From assembly GCF_027587175.1 (NCBI RefSeq), contig NZ_JAPCID010000004.1:1-64000 (forward strand): a stretch of 64,000 nt of DNA, written 5' to 3'. The stretch comes from Solirubrobacter deserti. Lineage in GTDB: Bacteria > Actinomycetota > Thermoleophilia > Solirubrobacterales > Solirubrobacteraceae. The number at the start of each line of letters is the position of its first letter. Position 1 is the first letter of the stretch. The notes beneath the pieces are model-generated. The model was not told the origin of the DNA. It ran no database searches and was given only the letters and a program-made list of their open reading frames with translations. A program made the translations under genes and the position numbers. Positions 7,878-16,282 of this stretch are shown here, piece after piece.

Positions 7878-8495
7878 ATGGATGACATCGAGGTGCTCGC
7901 GAACGCCATCGATCTCGAAGGCCGCACCGTGGTCGACGTCGGCTGCGGCGACGGCACGTTCGTCCGCGCGCTCCGCGAGGCGGGCGCGGACGCGATCGGC
8001 GTCGACATCGACATCAAGGACGCCCACTGGCTCGACCCCGAGGGCCGCTATCTGAAGGGCGGCGCCGAGCGGCTGCCGCTGCGCGACCAGTCCGTCGACG
8101 TGGCCACGCTGATGCGCAGCCTGCACCACGTGCCCGACCCGCGGGACGCGTTCCCGGAGCTGGCTCGCGTCGTGCGCGAGTACGTCTACATCGCCGAGCC
8201 GCTGCCCGAGGGCGAGTTCTTCGAGCTGCTGCGCCCGGTCGACGACGAGACCGAGGTCCGCGCGAAGGCGCAGGCGGCGATCCGCACCAGCGGCTTCGAG
8301 CACGTCGACACGATCGAGTACGAGGTCACCGTGCGGCTGGACCGGCTGGAGGAGCTGCGCGAGCGCGTGCTGGCCGCCGACCCCACCCGCGGCGACAGTT
8401 GGGCCGCCGTCGAGCACCAGCTCGCGGGCCGATTCAAGCCCGGGGACTTCCCGGTCCCGATGCGCGCGGACATCCTGCGCCCACCGGCGCGCTAG
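7878..8495 (+). CDS. Class I SAM-dependent methyltransferase
   Basis: 205 residues, a Methyltransf_11-type Rossmann methyltransferase. Motif I is VVDVGCGDGTFV (about residues 17-28). The acidic end of strand 2 is GVDIDIKD, and the motif LPLRDQSVDVATLMRSLHHV (residues 63-82) covers strand 4 and the usual post-motif His. Substrate unknown. ATG 7878 was chosen because it starts at the promoter-proximal end just after TACGCT and leaves a normal-length N-terminus. The stop overlaps the end of the convergent NrfD gene by 4 bp. Confidence 0.8.
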   Translation: MDDIEVLANAIDLEGRTVVDVGCGDGTFVRALREAGADAIGVDIDIKDAHWLDPEGRYLKGGAERLPLRDQSVDVATLMRSLHHVPDPRDAFPELARVVREYVYIAEPLPEGEFFELLRPVDDETEVRAKAQAAIRTSGFEHVDTIEYEVTVRLDRLEELRERVLAADPTRGDSWAAVEHQLAGRFKPGDFPVPMRADILRPPAR

Positions 8496-9598
8496 CGGCG
8501 AGCCATGCGGGCGACGGCTTCGTCGTCGCCCGCGGACTGCTTGCCGGCCTCGATCCAGGCGATGCGGGTCAGAAGGGCGGAGGCCAGGAAGAGCACGCTC
8601 GGGACGTCCCCGCCACGGCGCAGCAGTCGCAGGGCGACGCCGATGCGGGCCGCCCAGTTGGACAGCTTGTAGGCGCGGTGGTGCTCCAAAGGCTCCGCGA
8701 GCGAGCCGATGTGGCGGTCGTTGATCGGCGAGAGGATGAGCTTGCCGCCCATCGCCAGCAGCTCGAGGTGGCCGAGCGCCTCGCGGGTCGGGCCGGAGCG
8801 CTGGAGGAGGCGGTTGGCGCCCGCGCCGGAGGCTGCCGCGGTGCAGACGAAGATCGGTGCCAGCAGCACGCGCGAGCGCGCCCACAGCGGCGTGGCGGTG
8901 GCGGCCAGCAGCGCGCCGGTGTAGGACCCGAGGTAGGAGCCGAGCAGGGCGGTGGCGACGCCCGCGGCGCGGCCGGCGCGCTTGAAGCCGAGCACGTCGG
9001 CGGCGACGGCACCGGTCGCGGTCGTGGAGAACGCGACCAGGCACCACGCGCCCATGGACATCGGCGAGCGGACCTTGAAGATCCGCAGCATGTTCAAGAA
9101 GCGCGCGGGGCGCCCGAGGTCGGCGATCAGCAGCAGCGGCGCCGGGAGCACGGCCCCGAGCGCGAGCTTGCGGGCGAGCTCGGCGCCCTCGTGGTCGCCG
9201 AACTGGTCGCAGGCCACGGAGACGAGCGACGAGCCCGCCGCCAGCCCGCCGACGAAGAAGTACACCGGCACCTCCCACGTCCACAGCGTGGCGTGAATCA
9301 TCGGGCCCTGGACGGCGACCGGGACCTCCCCGCCGCCGCGGGCCCGGCGCGCGGCCTCGGCCACGGAGCCGTTGGCCGACGCGGACGCGTAGCGCGTGTC
9401 CTTGTCGTAGAGGAACGACCAGCGCGCGTCGCCCCAGCGCTCCTTGGCCAGCGCGACCTTCTCCCCCGTGCGCACCCAGCCGCCCGCCTGGCCGCGCCTC
9501 CCCACCGCGGGCGTGACGTCACGGCCCTCGGCGGTGCGGCCCTCCTCCGCCCGCCGCGTCACGTCCTCGGGCGGCGGGCCCTTGCGCTTCCCGCTCAT
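8492..9598 (-). CDS. nrfD: NrfD/PsrC-type membrane subunit of formate dehydrogenase
   Basis: 368-residue polytopic membrane protein of the NrfD/PsrC family, the quinone-interacting anchor of molybdopterin oxidoreductases. A soluble ~85-residue N-terminal part (MSGKRKGPPPEDVTRR...) precedes the hydrophobic bundle, which begins at about TLWTWEVPVYFFVGGLAAGSS and contains the ADLGRPARFLNMLRIFK and SPMSMGAWCL loops typical of the family. It replaces the haem-b FdnI-type subunit found in E. coli formate dehydrogenase N, so no haem ligands are expected. Its ATG overlaps the stop of the iron-sulfur subunit gene (ATGA). Likely role: passing electrons from the ferredoxin-like subunit to menaquinone. 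Confidence 0.85.
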   Translation of the reverse strand: MSGKRKGPPPEDVTRRAEEGRTAEGRDVTPAVGRRGQAGGWVRTGEKVALAKERWGDARWSFLYDKDTRYASASANGSVAEAARRARGGGEVPVAVQGPMIHATLWTWEVPVYFFVGGLAAGSSLVSVACDQFGDHEGAELARKLALGAVLPAPLLLIADLGRPARFLNMLRIFKVRSPMSMGAWCLVAFSTTATGAVAADVLGFKRAGRAAGVATALLGSYLGSYTGALLAATATPLWARSRVLLAPIFVCTAAASGAGANRLLQRSGPTREALGHLELLAMGGKLILSPINDRHIGSLAEPLEHHRAYKLSNWAARIGVALRLLRRGGDVPSVLFLASALLTRIAWIEAGKQSAGDDEAVARMARR

Positions 9599-10446
9599 CG
9601 TGCCTTCCGGAAGGCCGCGGCGAACGCGCCGAACGCGAGTCCCGCCGCCACGAACGCGGCCGCGACGCCCGTCGCGTTGGCGATCGGGCCGTTCTGCTGG
9701 ATGGGCGAGTCGGCATGGGCCGGGAGGCCGTAGCGCTCGGGCGGCTCGGTCAGCAGGAAGAACGCGCCGAGCCCGCCCGCGAGCTGGTCCTGCGGCTCGT
9801 CGCCGGCGCCGTACAGGTACGCGCCCTCCAGCCCGCGCTCGTGCAGCGTCGCCACGCGGCCCTTGGCCCGCTCGACGAGCTCCTCGTACGGTCCGAACTG
9901 GATCGAGTCGGTCGGGCACGCCTTCGCGCACGCCGGCTCGAGCCCGTCCTCGAGCCGGTCGTAGCAGAGCGTGCACTTGGCGGCCCGGCCGTCGTAGGGG
10001 TCGCGGTCGATGACGCCGAACGGGCACGAAGGCACGCAATAGCCGCAGCCGTTGCACACGTCGCTCTGGACGATCACCGTCTCGAACTCCGTGCGGATGA
10101 GCGCGCCTGTCGGGCAGGCGTCCAGGCAGCCGGCGTGGGTGCAGTGCTTGCACACGTCGGACATGAACACCCAGCGGTCCAGTTGCGCGCCGAGCGCGGC
10201 CTCGACGAAGTTCAGCGTCGGCTCGGGCTCGGGGATCCGCAGCGTCTCGACGAAGCGCACGTGGCGCCACGTCGAGGCCGACAACTCGCGCGTCGCGTCG
10301 TAGGACAACGAGGCGCGCAGGTCGTCGGCGGGCAGGTCGTTCCACTGCTTGCAGGCCACCTCGCACGCCTTGCAGCCGATGCACACCGTCGTGTCGGTGA
10401 AGAAGCCCATGCGCTGGGCCTCGGGGCGCTGGACGGCGATCTCCAT
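9595..10446 (-). CDS. Formate dehydrogenase iron-sulfur (beta) subunit
   Basis: 283 residues, four-cluster ferredoxin-like subunit (FdnH/HybA/DmsB type). Four Cys groups are visible: CIGCKACEVACKQW (22-35), CKHCTHAGCLDACP, CNGCGYCVPSCPFG, and CTLCYDRLEDG...CAKACP, consistent with four [4Fe-4S] clusters in a wire from the molybdenum site to the membrane. The C-terminus (IANATGVAAAFVAAGLAFGAF) is a single membrane helix, as in FdnH. ATG 10446 overlaps the stop of the alpha subunit gene by one base (TGATG), and its stop overlaps the NrfD start (ATGA), so all three subunits are translationally coupled. Confidence 0.9.
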   Translation of the reverse strand: MEIAVQRPEAQRMGFFTDTTVCIGCKACEVACKQWNDLPADDLRASLSYDATRELSASTWRHVRFVETLRIPEPEPTLNFVEAALGAQLDRWVFMSDVCKHCTHAGCLDACPTGALIRTEFETVIVQSDVCNGCGYCVPSCPFGVIDRDPYDGRAAKCTLCYDRLEDGLEPACAKACPTDSIQFGPYEELVERAKGRVATLHERGLEGAYLYGAGDEPQDQLAGGLGAFFLLTEPPERYGLPAHADSPIQQNGPIANATGVAAAFVAAGLAFGAFAAAFRKAR

Positions 10447-13400
10447 CAGGCCTGCTCCTCGTCGCCCAGCACGCTGTGCGGGGTCTTGCTTGCGAAGTCC
10501 GGCTGGTCGTCGTTCGGGTCCTGGTCGGTGTCGACGTCCGCGAGCCGCACGGTCGTCTCGCCTGCGCGCCGGCCCGCGCGGACGTTGCAGCGGAAGGCCT
10601 TGGACTCGTGGATGGTCGTGTTCGGGTCGCCGGAGATCGCGATCAGGTCGTTGACGGTGTCCCCCGTCACGCCCTGGGGGTTGGTCTTGAACGTGCCCCA
10701 GTGCCACGGCAGGCATACCTGATGGATGATCCGCTCGCCCATCCGCAGCGGCTGGACGCGGTTGGTGACCTTCGCGCGCGCCTCGATCTCGGCGCGCGGC
10801 GTCTCGATCACCATCCACTCGCCGTCCTTGATGCCGCGCTCACGCGCGAGCACCGGGTCGATCTCCGCGAACATCTCGGGTTGCAGCTCCGCCAGCCACG
10901 GCAGGTTGCGGCTCATCGGCCCGGCCGTGTGGTGCTCGGTGAGCCGGAAGGTCGAGGCCACGAGCGGATAGTGGTCGTCGCCTTCGGCGACCAGCGGGTT
11001 CTCGGGACGCATCCACGTGATCCCCAGCGGGTTGGCGCCCAGCTTGGGGTAGAGCTCGTTGGGCACGGGCGACTCGAGCGGCTCGTAGTGGGTGGGGATG
11101 GGCGCGTCCAGCGGGCCGCTCGGCGAGAACAGCGCTCCGCGGCCGTCGGGCATCATCATGAACGGCGCGCTGCCGGGGATCGCCTCCATCCCCTCCGCCT
11201 CCGGATGGGGCTTGTAGTCCGGCCGCTTGCCCGGCGGGAAGTCCGGGACGTCGTAGCCCGCCCACTGCTCCTTCTCCTCGTCCCACCAGACGAGCTTCTT
11301 GCGCTCGGACCACGGCTTGCCCGACGGGTCGGCGGACGCGCGGTTGTACAGGACGCGGCGGTTGGCGGGCCACGCCCAGCCCCACTCGGGCGAGACCGAC
11401 CCGCCCGGCGCGTTCAGGTCGCCCGGATCGCGGCGGCGCGGCTGGTTGACGTTGTCGGCGAAGCAGCCCGAGTAGATCCAGCAGCCGCACGACGTGGTGC
11501 CGTCGTTGCGCATCTCGCCGAAGCCGTTGAGCAGCTTGCCCGTCGTGAGGTCGTAGCCGTTGATCTCGCGCAGCACGTCCTCGGCGCTGGGTTCGTCGTG
11601 GACGCCGTGCTCGCGGTAGCCCCAGGTGAGGTGGCGGATCGGCCAGTCTCGTTCGCGCGTCGAGTCCGCGTAGTGGGCCTTGATGCGCTTGCCGATGTGG
11701 TACACGAAATGCAGCTCCGAGCGCGCGTCGCCCGGCGGGTCGAGCGCCTTGTCCCGCCACTGCAGCAGCCGCTGCGTGTTGGTGAAGTGGCCTTCCTTCT
11801 CCACGTGGCCCGCGGCCGGCATCAGGAAGACCTCGGTCTGGATGTCCTCGGGCTTCATCTCCCCGGAGCGGATCTCGGGCGAGTCCTTCCAGAAGGAGGC
11901 GGTCTCGAGGTCGGCGAGGTCGCGTACCACGAGCCACTTCATCTGCGCCAGCGCGCGGCGCTGCAGGCCCGCGTGCTGGGAGCCGACCGCCGGGTTCTGC
12001 CCCATCACGAACATGCCGTCGAGCCCGCCGTCCAGCGCTCGCAACGTCGTCACGTAGTGCGAGTGGTTGCCGGTGAGCTTGGGCAGGTGGCCGAACCCGT
12101 AGTCGTTCTCGGGCGTCGCCGCCTCGCCGAACCAGGCCTTCAGCAAGCTGATGATGTACTCGTCGAAGTGCGACCACCAGCCGCTCTTCTTGCCGCCCGC
12201 CTCGACGTAGTCGGCGAGCGTCTGGTCGTCCTCGGTGGCCCGCGGCATCGGCAGGTAGCCGGGCAGCAGGTCGTAGAGCGTCGGGATGTCGCTGGAGCCC
12301 TGGATCGAGGCGTGGCCGCGCATGGCCATGATGCCGCCGCCCGGCCGGCCGATGTTGCCCAGCAGCAGCTGCACGATCGAGCCGGCGCGGATCATCTGCA
12401 CGCCCGCGGTGTGCTGCGTCCAGCCCACGGCGTAGGCGAGCATCGTCGTGCGCTCGCGGCCCGAGTTGGCGATCAGCGTCTCGGCGACCTTCAGAAACTG
12501 GTCCTCGGGGATGCCGCAGACCTTGGACACCATCTCCGGCGTGTACCGCGAGTAGTGCCGGCGCAGGACCTGGAAGACGCAGCGCGGGTGCTGGAGCGTC
12601 GGGTCGTTGGGGACCTGCTGCAGGGTCTCGCCGGCCTGCGTGCGGTCCGTGAACGCCTGTGTCGACTGCACCTCGGCGCTGGACGTCTTGCCGGGCGGCT
12701 CCATGCCCTCGAACAGCCACGTCGTCCGGTCGTAGGTGCCCTTCTCCGGATCGAAGCCCGAGAACAGGCCCTCGAGGTCCTCCGTGTCCTGGAAGTCCTC
12801 GCGCACGAGGTGCGGCGCGTTCGTGTAGTTGACGACGTACTCCTCGAAGTACGACTTGGTCTCGATGATGTGGCGGATCAGCCCGCCCAGGAAGGCGATG
12901 TCCGACCCGGCGCGGATCGGGACGTGCATGTCCGAGACGGCGCTCGTGCGGCTGAAGTGCGGGTCGACGTGGATGAGCTTGGCGCCGCGTTCACGCGCCT
13001 TCATCGCCCAGCGGGAGCCGACGGGATGGGCCTCCATGAGCCCAGAGCCCTGGATCCAGATGCAGTCCGCGTTCTGGAAGTCCTGCTGGTAGTTGGTCGC
13101 CGCGCCGCGGCCGAACGAGGTCCCCAGACCGGGCACCGAGGAGGAGTGTCATATACGCGCCTGGTTCTCGATCTGCAGGGCGCCCATGGCGGTGAACAGC
13201 TTCTTGATGAGGTAGTTCTCCTCGTTGTCGAGCGTCGCGCCGCCGAGGTGCGCGAAGCCGAGCGTGCGGTTCACGCGCCGGCCGCGCTCGTCGTGCTCCT
13301 GCCAGTGGTTCTCGCGCGCGGCGATCACCCGTTCGGCGATCATGTCCATCGCCGTCTCGAGGTCCAGATCCTCCCACTCGGTGCCGCCCGGCCGGCGGTA

Positions 13401-13715
13401 GCGGATCTTCGTCAGCCGCCCGGGCTGCTGGATCAGCTGGCGCGAAGCCGAGCCCTTCGGGCACAGCGTGCCCTGGTTGATGGGCGAGTTCGGGTTGCCC
13501 TCGATGTCGACGAGCTCGCCGTCGCGCGTGTAGACAAGCTGACCGCAGCCGACCGCGCAATACGGGCAGACGGACTCGGTCACCTTCAGGCCGGCGATCC
13601 GCGAGCCCGCCTTGAGCGTGTTGTCGGAGGCGGCGGCGGGCCCCAGCCCCCAGTCCATCGCGCGCCCGACGACCGGCAGCTCACGCAGGCGCTTGAACGG
13701 CTTGGGCCGGCTCAC
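10446..13715 (-). CDS. fdnG: Selenocysteine formate dehydrogenase alpha subunit (UGA at 13149-13151 = Sec)
   Basis: 1089-residue molybdopterin formate dehydrogenase. The frame is open from a GTG at 13715 to 10446 except for one TGA (13151..13149) at residue 189. The flanking peptide is NQARI-U-HSSSVPGLGTSFGRG, the place where FdnG/FdhF enzymes carry the catalytic Sec followed by His, so the TGA is a Sec codon and the gene is not broken. The [4Fe-4S] cysteines are Cys50, 53, 57 and 85 (CPYCAVGCG ... GTLCPKG). A SECIS hairpin starts 14 nt after the U of the UGA. No RR Tat signal is visible, so a cytoplasm-facing location is possible. Reaction: formate to CO2 plus two electrons. Automatic annotation would split it into 10446-13136 and 13149-13715. 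Confidence 0.92.
13119..13137 (-). promoter_or_regulatory. Bacterial SECIS hairpin for the fdnG Sec codon
   Basis: On the mRNA, 14 nt from the first base of UGA, the 19-nt element reads GGUGCCC-GGUCU-GGGGACC. GGU pairs with ACC, then there is a G/G mismatch, then CCC pairs with GGG, with apical loop GGUCU. E. coli fdhF has the same loop (GGUCU) at the same distance from its UGA, and the context UGACAC is also shared. SelB recognises this loop. The bulged U of the E. coli element is replaced by a G/G mismatch here. Confidence 0.8.
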
Positions 13716-13873
13716 TCCTGGTCCCTACCCAGGTCCTCAGGATTGGCGATCACGAACACGCCCGAGACGATGAACCCGAGGCACAGCAGCACGCCGGCGA
13801 TGCGGGTGAACGTGTTCTCGAACAGCAGCATCAACGGCAGGCCCAGCACGAGGCAGGCGAACATGAGCTTCAT
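13712..13873 (-). CDS. Small two-helix membrane protein in cyd-fdh operon
   Basis: 53 residues, beginning MKLMFACLVLGLPLMLLFE and containing a second hydrophobic helix (IAGVLLCLGFIVSGVFVIA) and an acidic C-terminus (NPEDLGRDQE). Its ATG overlaps the cydB stop (ATGA), and its stop overlaps the GTG of the formate dehydrogenase alpha gene (GTGA), so it is coupled on both sides and very likely expressed. It lies where proteobacteria encode CydX, but CydX has one helix and is ~30 residues, and I see no sequence likeness. It could be a bd-oxidase accessory subunit or a linker to the dehydrogenase. Unrecognised family. Confidence 0.7.
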   Translation of the reverse strand: MKLMFACLVLGLPLMLLFENTFTRIAGVLLCLGFIVSGVFVIANPEDLGRDQE

Positions 13874-14910
13874 CGGTCCACCGGCCGGAAGCGCTGGTCG
13901 AGCGGCTCGTACTCCTGGTCGAGCGTGCCGCGCAACACGAGTCGGTACAGCCACCACAGCGATGGGACCAATACGAGCATGCCGAGCCCGACGCTCACCA
14001 CCAGAGCGGTCAGCGTTGTGTCGCTCGCGGCCGCGTCGTCGAGCGTCAACGCGCCCGGCAGGATGTAGGGGTCCTGCGCGAGCGCCCAGCCGACCGTCAT
14101 CGCGCCCACGGCGGCCGCGGCGGTGAAGCGGGCGGGGCCGTAGCGGCCCGTGATGACGAGCGCGATCGTGACGAGCCCGGCCGCACCGCTGAGGACGACC
14201 GCGATCAACCCGTCGCCGGAGGTCAGCCCGTCGTAGAGCTCGCGGGCGTCGGCACGCACGACCAGCAGGCTGATCAGCGCCGCCGCTCCCGCCACCACTC
14301 CGGAGCCGATCGCGCGCTTGCGGAACGCGTCGACCATGTCGGGCAGCTCGGCGCGGCGGGCGTCGCCGGTGAGAAAGACGGCGGCGAGGTGCGCGCCGGT
14401 GAGGATGGCGACGACCCCGAGTGCGATCGACGTCGGGTTCAGCCAGCTGTCGATCAGGTCGCCCGCCGCGTTGCCGACCGGCACGCGGCCCGACGCGACG
14501 CCACCGATCGCGGCGCCGAAGAAGAACGGGATCAGCACGGACGAGAACGCGAACGTCGCGCCGAGCACGCGCGCCTCGTTGATCGTCGCGGCCTGGCCGC
14601 GCAGCGCGAACGCCATCCCCCGGAAGATCACGCCCAGCGCGGCGAGGAAGAGCGGGATCGAGAGCGTCGACATCAGCGAGCCGAACGCGACCGGGAACGC
14701 CGTCCACACCATCACCAGAACGAAGATCAGCCACACGTGGTTGGCCTCCCACACGGGGCTCATCGAGCGCTGGATCATGCCCCGCAGGCGCCCGCCGCGC
14801 TCGGCGCCGCCCGCGGTCAGGTCCCAGAAGCCCGCGCCGAAGTCCGCGCTGCCGAACACGGCGTACGCGGTCACGCCGAGGATCACGAGCGCGGCGCAGA
14901 CCTCAGCCAC
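13870..14910 (-). CDS. cydB: Cytochrome bd ubiquinol oxidase subunit II (CydB)
   Basis: 346-residue polytopic subunit II of the bd-type quinol:O2 oxidase. Characteristic N-terminal features are present: GSADFGAGFWDL (20-31) and the MSPVWEANHVWLIF segment (about 50-63) with its conserved Trp and Glu. The following hydrophobic helices (MVWTAFPVAFGSL and onward) match the family layout. Subunit II stabilises the haem b595/d site in CydA. GTG start at 14910 overlaps the cydA stop by 8 nt. Its own stop overlaps the 53-residue gene by ATGA. No cydCD exporter genes are in the window. Confidence 0.93.
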   Translation of the reverse strand: MAEVCAALVILGVTAYAVFGSADFGAGFWDLTAGGAERGGRLRGMIQRSMSPVWEANHVWLIFVLVMVWTAFPVAFGSLMSTLSIPLFLAALGVIFRGMAFALRGQAATINEARVLGATFAFSSVLIPFFFGAAIGGVASGRVPVGNAAGDLIDSWLNPTSIALGVVAILTGAHLAAVFLTGDARRAELPDMVDAFRKRAIGSGVVAGAAALISLLVVRADARELYDGLTSGDGLIAVVLSGAAGLVTIALVITGRYGPARFTAAAAVGAMTVGWALAQDPYILPGALTLDDAAASDTTLTALVVSVGLGMLVLVPSLWWLYRLVLRGTLDQEYEPLDQRFRPVDR

Positions 14911-16282
14911 GGTCGAGCTCCGTCTCGATGGGGCGCGAGGCGAGCCGGCGCAGCAGCCAGATCACCGACCCGAACAGCAGCACGTAGACGGCGATCAGCG
15001 CGGCGTAGCCGATCTCGAGGTTGTCCGCGCTCGTGACGGCGTCCTCGGTGCGCATGAAGCCGTAGACGATCCACGGCTGGCGGCCGACCTCGGTCGTCAC
15101 CCAGCCCGCGATCAGGGCGACCACCGACAACGGCCCGGCCAGCATCACGGCGCGGAAGAACCACTTGGTGTCGGGCAATCGGCGCTTGCGCAGCCACACG
15201 AAGATGAAGAACGAGCCGAGCGCGGCCAGGAACGTCCCGATCGCGATCATCGTCTGGAACGACGTGCGGACGATGTTCACCGGCGGGCGGTCCTCTGGCG
15301 GGACCGACTCGAGCCCGACGACCTCGGCCGTCGGGTTGTGGTGGGCGAGGATCGAGAGCAGGTACGGGATCTTGATCCCGTAGCGGACCTCGTTGCGCTC
15401 GGTGTCGTAGAAGCCGCCGAGGTGGAACGCGGCGCCCTCCTCGGTCTTGTAGACGCCCTCGAACGCGGCCAGCTTGACGGGCTGGCTCTCGGCGACCTTG
15501 CGGCCCGCCCAGTCGCCGACGACGACCTGGATCGGCGCCGCCAGCGCGGCGAACGCGAGCGGCACGACCAGCGCCGTGCGCGTGTAGCGGTCCCGACGGC
15601 CCTTCAGCCAGCGGCGCGCGTAGTAGGCGGCGACGAGGAAGCCGGCGACGAGGTAGCCCGCGAGGTACATGTGCACGAGCTCGTGGGCGACATGGCCGTT
15701 GAGCAGTGCGCTGAACGGCACCGGGTCCTGCACCTGCCCGTTGACCACCTCGAAGCCCTGCGGGTCGTTCATCCAGCCGTTGACGCTGATCACGAACGCG
15801 CTGCCCGTGGCGCCGGTGATGATGATCGGGACGCCGGTGAGGATGTGCGTGCGCTTCGGGAGCCGGTCCCACCCGTAGACGTAGATCGCGATGAAGATCG
15901 CCTCGAGGAAGAACGAGATGCCCTCGAGGCCGAACGCGACGCCGAACACCTCGCCGAACGTGGCCATGAAGTCCGGCCACAGCAGTCCGAACTCGAACGA
16001 CAGGATGGTCCCCGTTACGACACCGGTGGCGAAGATGATCAGCGCCACCTTCGACCAGCGCTTCGCCAGCGCCTTGTACAGCGGGTCGCCCGTGCGCAGG
16101 TAGAGGCCCTCGACGAACAGGAACATCGCGGGGAAGGCGATGCCGAAGCACACCAGCGGGATGTGCACCGCCAGGCTCAGCGCCTGCATCTGGCGCGCTT
16201 CGAGCGCGTCGGGCGAACCCGTGCCCTCGAGGACCCCCCGGACCTGCTCGGCGGCGAAGACCACCAGCGTTGCGTCGGCCAT
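14903..16282 (-). CDS. cydA: Cytochrome bd ubiquinol oxidase subunit I (CydA)
   Basis: 459-residue catalytic subunit of cytochrome bd, which oxidises quinol and reduces O2 to water without pumping protons. The N-terminal haem ligand region is SLAVHIPLVCFGIAF (His40). HELVHMYLAG supplies the second His, and the SFQTMIAIGTF helix carries the Met candidate. GRQPW, diagnostic of CydA, is present near residue 395. The Q-loop is short, as usual in actinobacteria. The first gene of the cydAB-fdh operon: TAGTGT at 16297..16292 lies 9 nt before the ATG, a near-leaderless promoter. Co-transcription with formate dehydrogenase suggests formate-driven high-affinity O2 respiration. Confidence 0.93.
   Translation of the reverse strand: MADATLVVFAAEQVRGVLEGTGSPDALEARQMQALSLAVHIPLVCFGIAFPAMFLFVEGLYLRTGDPLYKALAKRWSKVALIIFATGVVTGTILSFEFGLLWPDFMATFGEVFGVAFGLEGISFFLEAIFIAIYVYGWDRLPKRTHILTGVPIIITGATGSAFVISVNGWMNDPQGFEVVNGQVQDPVPFSALLNGHVAHELVHMYLAGYLVAGFLVAAYYARRWLKGRRDRYTRTALVVPLAFAALAAPIQVVVGDWAGRKVAESQPVKLAAFEGVYKTEEGAAFHLGGFYDTERNEVRYGIKIPYLLSILAHHNPTAEVVGLESVPPEDRPPVNIVRTSFQTMIAIGTFLAALGSFFIFVWLRKRRLPDTKWFFRAVMLAGPLSVVALIAGWVTTEVGRQPWIVYGFMRTEDAVTSADNLEIGYAALIAVYVLLFGSVIWLLRRLASRPIETELDRG

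What the first reader, a model, noticed from the sequence alone, without database searches (positions are those of the whole stretch)
13149..13151. Formate dehydrogenase is a selenoprotein: in-frame TGA at the catalytic Sec position
The minus-strand frame is open from 13715 to 10446 apart from one TGA. It falls exactly at the Sec of FdnG/FdhF enzymes (NQARI-U-H), with strong homology on both sides. Annotation software would report two broken genes. It implies a selA/selB/selC/selD system elsewhere in this genome.
Basis: partly seen in the sequence, partly recalled or inferred. Interest (0 to 1): 0.78.

Follow-up and report, generated by a model that had tools for sequence, protein, structure and literature searches.

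The report
Selenocysteine formate dehydrogenase in Solirubrobacter
A soil actinobacterium reads one in-frame UGA 'stop' as selenocysteine to make a formate-oxidising enzyme; this is a well-known kind of gene, with one apparently undescribed detail: in this phylum the codon just before the UGA is also held fixed at the RNA-letter level.

Summary
Confirmed and essentially ordinary. The minus-strand frame 13715-10446 is open except for TGA at 13151-13149. That TGA aligns with the selenocysteine of solved formate dehydrogenases, and the read-through protein is NCBIfam NF041513 (1634.6 bits; cut-off 1400). The genome encodes selA, selB, selD, FdhD and a tRNA-Sec (UCA). 30 of 33 genomes of the order with a TGA-type gene have selA or selB; none of 5 with only Cys-type genes do. 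A SECIS hairpin 11 bases after the UGA is shown by compensatory synonymous changes: its two variable stem pairs are the strongest-covarying pairs in the region. Selenium-dependent formate oxidation and detected FDH and Sel proteins are published for another actinobacterium (PMC7176365).

Two further points came up. (1) The codon before the UGA is ATA in 98 of 132 actinobacterial homologues, although Ile is otherwise mostly ATC; its third base is A/U in 91%, against a mean of 10% over 976 codon columns, and only the SECIS-loop codon scores higher. Cys homologues, Pseudomonadota homologues and actinobacterial SelD do not show this. (2) SelB in this order is short, with two apparent winged-helix domains instead of four. 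I found no report of (1) in the open-licence literature.

The parts
10446..13715 (-). fdhA: selenocysteine formate dehydrogenase alpha subunit, 1089 aa, GTG start at 13715 overlapping the stop of the small upstream ORF
   Evidence: NF041513, 1634.6 bits, cut-off 1400; Molybdop_Fe4S4, Molybdopterin, Molydop_binding
13149..13151 (-). in-frame TGA read as selenocysteine (residue 189)
13152..13154 (-). ATA (Ile) codon immediately 5' of the UGA; the only ATA among 47 Ile codons of the gene; third base A/U in 91% of actinobacterial UGA homologues
13119..13137 (-). SECIS hairpin: 7-pair stem around loop GGTCT (13126-13130); six pairs standard, the fourth pair is G.G in this gene
   Evidence: Rfam SECIS_3, 28.3 bits, below gathering score 63; covariation
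9595..10446 (-). fdhB-like 4Fe-4S ferredoxin subunit
   Evidence: best model TIGR01582 FDH-beta, 169 bits, below its cut-off; follows fdhA in nearly all relatives
8492..9640 (-). NrfD-like membrane subunit, presumed quinone-reducing anchor (fdhC)
   Evidence: (PF03916, 66.8 bits)
13712..13873 (-). small hydrophobic ORF between cydB and fdhA
   Evidence: tail of the 346-aa ORF 13712-14752
13870..14910 (-). cydB-like cytochrome bd oxidase subunit II, upstream of fdhA
14903..16282 (-). cydA-like cytochrome bd oxidase subunit I

Best explanation
The locus encodes a three-subunit, membrane-anchored molybdopterin formate dehydrogenase whose catalytic residue is selenocysteine. SelD makes selenophosphate, SelA converts Ser-tRNA-Sec to Sec-tRNA-Sec, and SelB carries it to ribosomes stalled at UGA 13151-13149. 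SelB is positioned by a hairpin with loop GGUCU that begins 11 bases after the UGA. The enzyme oxidises formate and passes electrons through the Fe-S subunit and the NrfD-like subunit, presumably to menaquinone and, in this genus, perhaps on to the neighbouring cytochrome bd oxidase. Shown by computation: the frame, the alignment of the TGA with Sec, its conservation, the machinery genes, their co-occurrence with the TGA, and the hairpin. Inferred: actual Sec insertion in this strain, the quinone route and the physiological role. The gene also carries a conserved A/U-ending codon just before the UGA, which I take to be a 5' codon-context element that favours Sec insertion over termination. The constraint is shown; its mechanism is not.
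For: Frame and TGA. Family NF041513 well over cut-off. TGA aligned with Sec of solved FDHs. Own selA (442 bits), selB (334.8 bits), selD (378 bits), tRNA-Sec UCA (62.6 bits, gathering score 47) and FdhD (161 bits). TGA in 33 of 151 genomes of the order; 30 of those 33 have selA or selB, against 0 of 5 genomes with only Cys-type FDH (Fisher p = 1e-4) and against 16 of the 118 others (p = 9e-17). SECIS hairpin: among 101 sequences the two highest-scoring covarying position pairs are +17/+29 (C-G 58, G-C 27, U-A 9) and +20/+26 (C-G 88, G-C 12), both nested in one stem around the loop. The loop U is invariant in the 102 close UGA homologues and lost in most Cys homologues. Experimental precedent: Actinomycetospora chiangmaiensis, selenite-dependent formate removal, SelA/SelB/SelD and FDH subunits detected by proteomics (PMC7176365).
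Against: One genome (G027, estimated 97% complete, 110 contigs) has the TGA-type gene but no selA, selB or selD hit; G061 and G079 also lack selA/selB but are less complete. The window's own hairpin has one G.G pair and does not fold better than shuffled sequence; Rfam SECIS_3 matches only below its gathering score. No protein or selenium data exist for this strain.
Confidence: 0.97

Rival explanations
1. The TGA is a nonsense mutation or sequencing error in a Cys-type formate dehydrogenase; the gene is broken.
For: The frame is formally interrupted, and Cys-type homologues exist in the order.
Against: The same TGA is in 132 homologues across the phylum with open frames on both sides. The downstream hairpin is kept by compensatory synonymous changes. 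Presence of the TGA tracks the sel genes.
Confidence: 0.01
2. UGA is read through by another tRNA (for example tRNA-Trp) or reassigned genome-wide, not as selenocysteine.
For: None specific.
Against: Ordinary genes in the window end with TGA. The genome has a tRNA with UCA anticodon scoring as tRNA-Sec, plus SelA, SelB and SelD. The position is the catalytic Sec/Cys of the family.
Confidence: 0.01
3. The conserved ATA before the UGA is a by-product (shared ancestry, or a need for Ile) and not a translational signal.
For: It is absent from Pseudomonadota FDH (GTC in 20 of 27) and actinobacterial SelD (A/U third base in 29%), so it is not a general rule of Sec decoding. No base-pairing partner was found.
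Against: Ten other conserved Ile columns of the same genes are ATC in most rows on the same tree, whereas this one is ATA 93, ATT 12, ATC 7. Neighbouring wobble bases have drifted to G/C. The eight distinct Cys homologues compared have no A/U there. Among 976 codon columns only the SECIS-loop codon is higher.
Confidence: 0.2

Closest known systems
NCBIfam NF041513, actinobacterial formate dehydrogenase (formate_DH_Act)
   Same: Full-length match 22-1054 of 1090 at 1634.6 bits, cut-off 1400.
   Different: Nothing that matters.
Actinomycetospora chiangmaiensis FDH1 (FdhA1 1078 aa, FdhB1, FdhC1, listed in one cluster with SelA and SelB; PMC7176365)
   Same: Sec-containing alpha subunit, Fe-S beta and membrane gamma subunits, actinobacterial SelA/SelB/SelD.
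   Different: In Solirubrobacter selA and selB lie on another contig; SelB is 483 aa against 597 aa there.
E. coli FdnG (1kqf) and Desulfovibrio FdhA (6sdr)
   Same: Same enzyme family and the same Sec position.
   Different: The membrane subunit here is NrfD-like. I see no twin-arginine motif at the N-terminus, so the catalytic subunit may face the cytoplasm (by eye, not tested).
E. coli SelB (614 aa; 5lzb) and Aquifex SelB (4zu9)
   Same: GTPase, domain 2, beta-barrel and last winged helix.
   Different: About 120 residues shorter between domain 3 and the last winged helix; the model shows two winged-helix units.

Membership tests
Selenocysteine formate dehydrogenase (NF041513 / TIGR01553) | Score above the curated cut-off over the full length | tested here: met
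   NF041513 1634.6 vs 1400; TIGR01553 973.8 vs 814.2
Selenocysteine formate dehydrogenase (NF041513 / TIGR01553) | UGA at the catalytic Sec position | tested here: met
Selenocysteine formate dehydrogenase (NF041513 / TIGR01553) | Fe4S4 site and molybdopterin domains | tested here: met
   PF04879, PF00384, PF01568
Selenocysteine formate dehydrogenase (NF041513 / TIGR01553) | Formate oxidation depending on selenium | not testable with these tools
   needs enzyme assay; reported for a relative (PMC7176365)
Bacterial Sec-decoding trait | selA, selB, selC (tRNA-Sec) and selD in the genome | tested here: met
Bacterial SECIS element | Hairpin just after the UGA, 3-9 nt loop with G in its first two positions, upper stem of 4-16 bp | tested here: met
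   stem +14..+32, loop GGTCT, covariation over 101 sequences; model as in PMC13188914
Rfam SECIS_3 (RF01989) | Score at or above the gathering score | tested here: not met
   28.3 bits against 63, E = 1.2e-4 in 201 bases

The most novel reading that the evidence does not exclude
In Actinomycetota formate dehydrogenase genes the Sec-insertion signal extends 5' of the UGA: the preceding codon must end in A or U (mostly the rare AUA). It would act as a P-site or slow-codon context that tips the contest between SelB and release factor 2. The bacterial SECIS models I read look only downstream of the UGA.
Probability: 0.55. Interest if true: 0.5.

Novelty: new member of a known kind. Interest (0 to 1): 0.3.

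Why it matters
The gene itself adds a well-supported selenoprotein to a soil lineage and guards against annotating it as two fragments. The more useful result is comparative. A synonymous site just 5' of the UGA is constrained almost as tightly as the SECIS loop, in GC-rich genomes where such a codon is otherwise nearly absent. That makes a directly testable proposal about 5' context in Sec decoding, and it could sharpen selenoprotein prediction, since a current predictor (deep-Sep, PMC12013277) feeds its Sec-TGA model only the sequence downstream of the TGA.

Tried and rejected
Broken gene or sequencing error: rejected by conservation of the TGA. Single-sequence folding of the SECIS was uninformative (z = +1.9); covariation settled it. 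Base pairing of the -1 base within -15..+65: no partner found. Internal AUG start made by ATATGA: rejected because the ATT and GTT variants have no ATG. General 5' rule for Sec codons: rejected by SelD and Pseudomonadota FDH. An in-frame TGA flagged inside SelB of G138 turned out to be its normal stop. Literature searches for a 5' codon rule, an AUA codon before Sec, or Solirubrobacter selenoproteins found nothing on point; only open-licence papers are held, so a report elsewhere could have been missed.

Full report
Observation. Read with TGA as Sec, minus-strand 13715-10446 is a single frame of 1089 residues with one internal TGA at codon 189, 13151-13149. A mechanical ORF caller splits it into 188 and 896 aa. 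The product matches NF041513 formate_DH_Act at 1634.6 bits (cut-off 1400) and TIGR01553 at 973.8 (cut-off 814.2) over its whole length. It has the Fe4S4, molybdopterin and dinucleotide-binding domains. The TGA lies in ENQARI-U-HSSSVPGLG and aligns with the Sec of the solved selenocysteine-containing FDHs 6sdr/6sdv.

Machinery. The own genome (129 contigs, 97.3% complete) has SelA (TIGR00474, 442 bits) and SelB (TIGR00475, 334.8 bits) close together on C38, SelD on C30 (378 bits), FdhD on C50 (161 bits) and one tRNA-Sec with anticodon UCA on C37 (62.6 bits; ARAGORN agrees).

Conservation and co-occurrence. Of 151 genomes of the order, 40 encode the enzyme. The gene carries the in-frame TGA in 33 genomes; in five others every gene whose site could be read is Cys. 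30 of the 33 have selA or selB; none of the five do (Fisher p = 1e-4; all 151 genomes p = 9e-17). The exceptions are G061 and G079, which are incomplete, and G027, estimated 97% complete but with no selA, selB or selD hit. G027 remains unexplained; a binning or assembly gap is my guess. In several relatives selA/selB sit within about 10 kb of the FDH gene (for example G005 and G034); in Solirubrobacter they do not.

SECIS. I extracted the site from 132 UGA homologues across Actinomycetota. In the 101 distinct close homologues, mutual information corrected for column background ranks two base pairs first and second among all position pairs: +17/+29 (C-G 58, G-C 27, U-A 9) and +20/+26 (C-G 88, G-C 12). 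Both belong to one stem, +14..+20 with +26..+32, around the loop GGUCU/AGUCU. The changes are synonymous. The window's own copy has G.G at +17/+29, which may be tolerated; recalled from memory, E. coli fdhF has its bulged U at about this place. Rfam SECIS_3 matches exactly here but below its gathering score.

The codon before the UGA. In the 132 UGA homologues the preceding codon is ATA 98, ATT 12, GTT 9, ATC 7, TTG 3, and ATG, GTC and TTA once each. In the nine Cys homologues it is GTC 5, GTG 2, CTC 1, ATC 1. In the window's gene this is the only ATA among 47 Ile codons; 14 other window genes have 1 ATA in 196. Across 976 alignable codon columns the mean A/U fraction at the third base is 0.104 (sd 0.064). 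The SECIS-loop codon (+7) has 0.99, this codon 0.91, and the next column 0.47. With third-position GC of 90% or more the figures are 1.00, 0.91 and a mean of 0.05. Ten other conserved Ile columns on the same tree are mostly ATC. The columns share one tree, so common ancestry alone does not explain the contrast. The rule is not general: Pseudomonadota FDH has GTC in 20 of 27 and actinobacterial SelD with UGA shows 29%. No pairing partner was found. The 5' codon is known to affect termination at stop codons (papers cited in PMC8704476), so a role in the contest between SelB and RF2, or as a slow codon that delays the ribosome, is reasonable but unproven.

SelB. The own SelB has 483 aa and relatives in the order about 490-524. 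It aligns with E. coli SelB 3-368 and 568-607, leaving 78 residues where E. coli has about 200. The AlphaFold2 model (mean pLDDT 67.7, but mostly 80-87 over 381-470) shows two helix-helix-strand units at the C-terminus, read here as two winged helices. That E. coli SelB has four is from general knowledge.

Locus. fdhB-like and NrfD-like genes follow fdhA in nearly all relatives examined. cydA and cydB precede it only in the Solirubrobacter loci and G034 among the stretches held (many of these have only 1.5-kb flanks). A formate-to-quinone-to-oxygen chain is an inference.

Judgement. It is a new member of a well-known kind with published experimental precedent in the phylum (PMC7176365). The only part I could not find in the literature is the constrained 5' codon, and only open-licence papers could be searched.

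Noticed in passing
window 13152-13154 (-) and 132 homologues: Codon before the Sec UGA is ATA/ATT/GTT far beyond codon-usage expectation in actinobacterial FDH; not seen in Cys homologues, Pseudomonadota FDH or SelD.
   Followed up: yes
L010:11267-12718 (+): SelB of this order is about 480-520 aa with two apparent winged-helix domains instead of four.
   Followed up: partly
G027 contig C24 (L300, L037): Genome with a UGA-type fdhA and SECIS but no selA, selB or selD hit; identical at the site to L026, a metagenome-assembled genome.
   Followed up: partly
window 13870-16282 (-): Cytochrome bd oxidase genes cydA and cydB lie directly upstream of fdhA in Solirubrobacter but not in most relatives examined.
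   Followed up: partly
window 13122 and 13134 (-): The window's SECIS stem has a G.G pair at +17/+29, found in 3 of 101 sequences; its congener G063 has C-G.
   Followed up: partly
G001, G010, G028, G039, G117, G139 and ten others: Genomes of the order with selA or selB but no UGA-type formate dehydrogenase found; they may hold other selenoproteins.
   Followed up: no
Pseudomonadota loci L180-L207: Codon before the FDH UGA is GTC or GTT in 23 of 27 and never GTG, although GTG is about as common as GTC in these genes: a different -1 preference.
   Followed up: no
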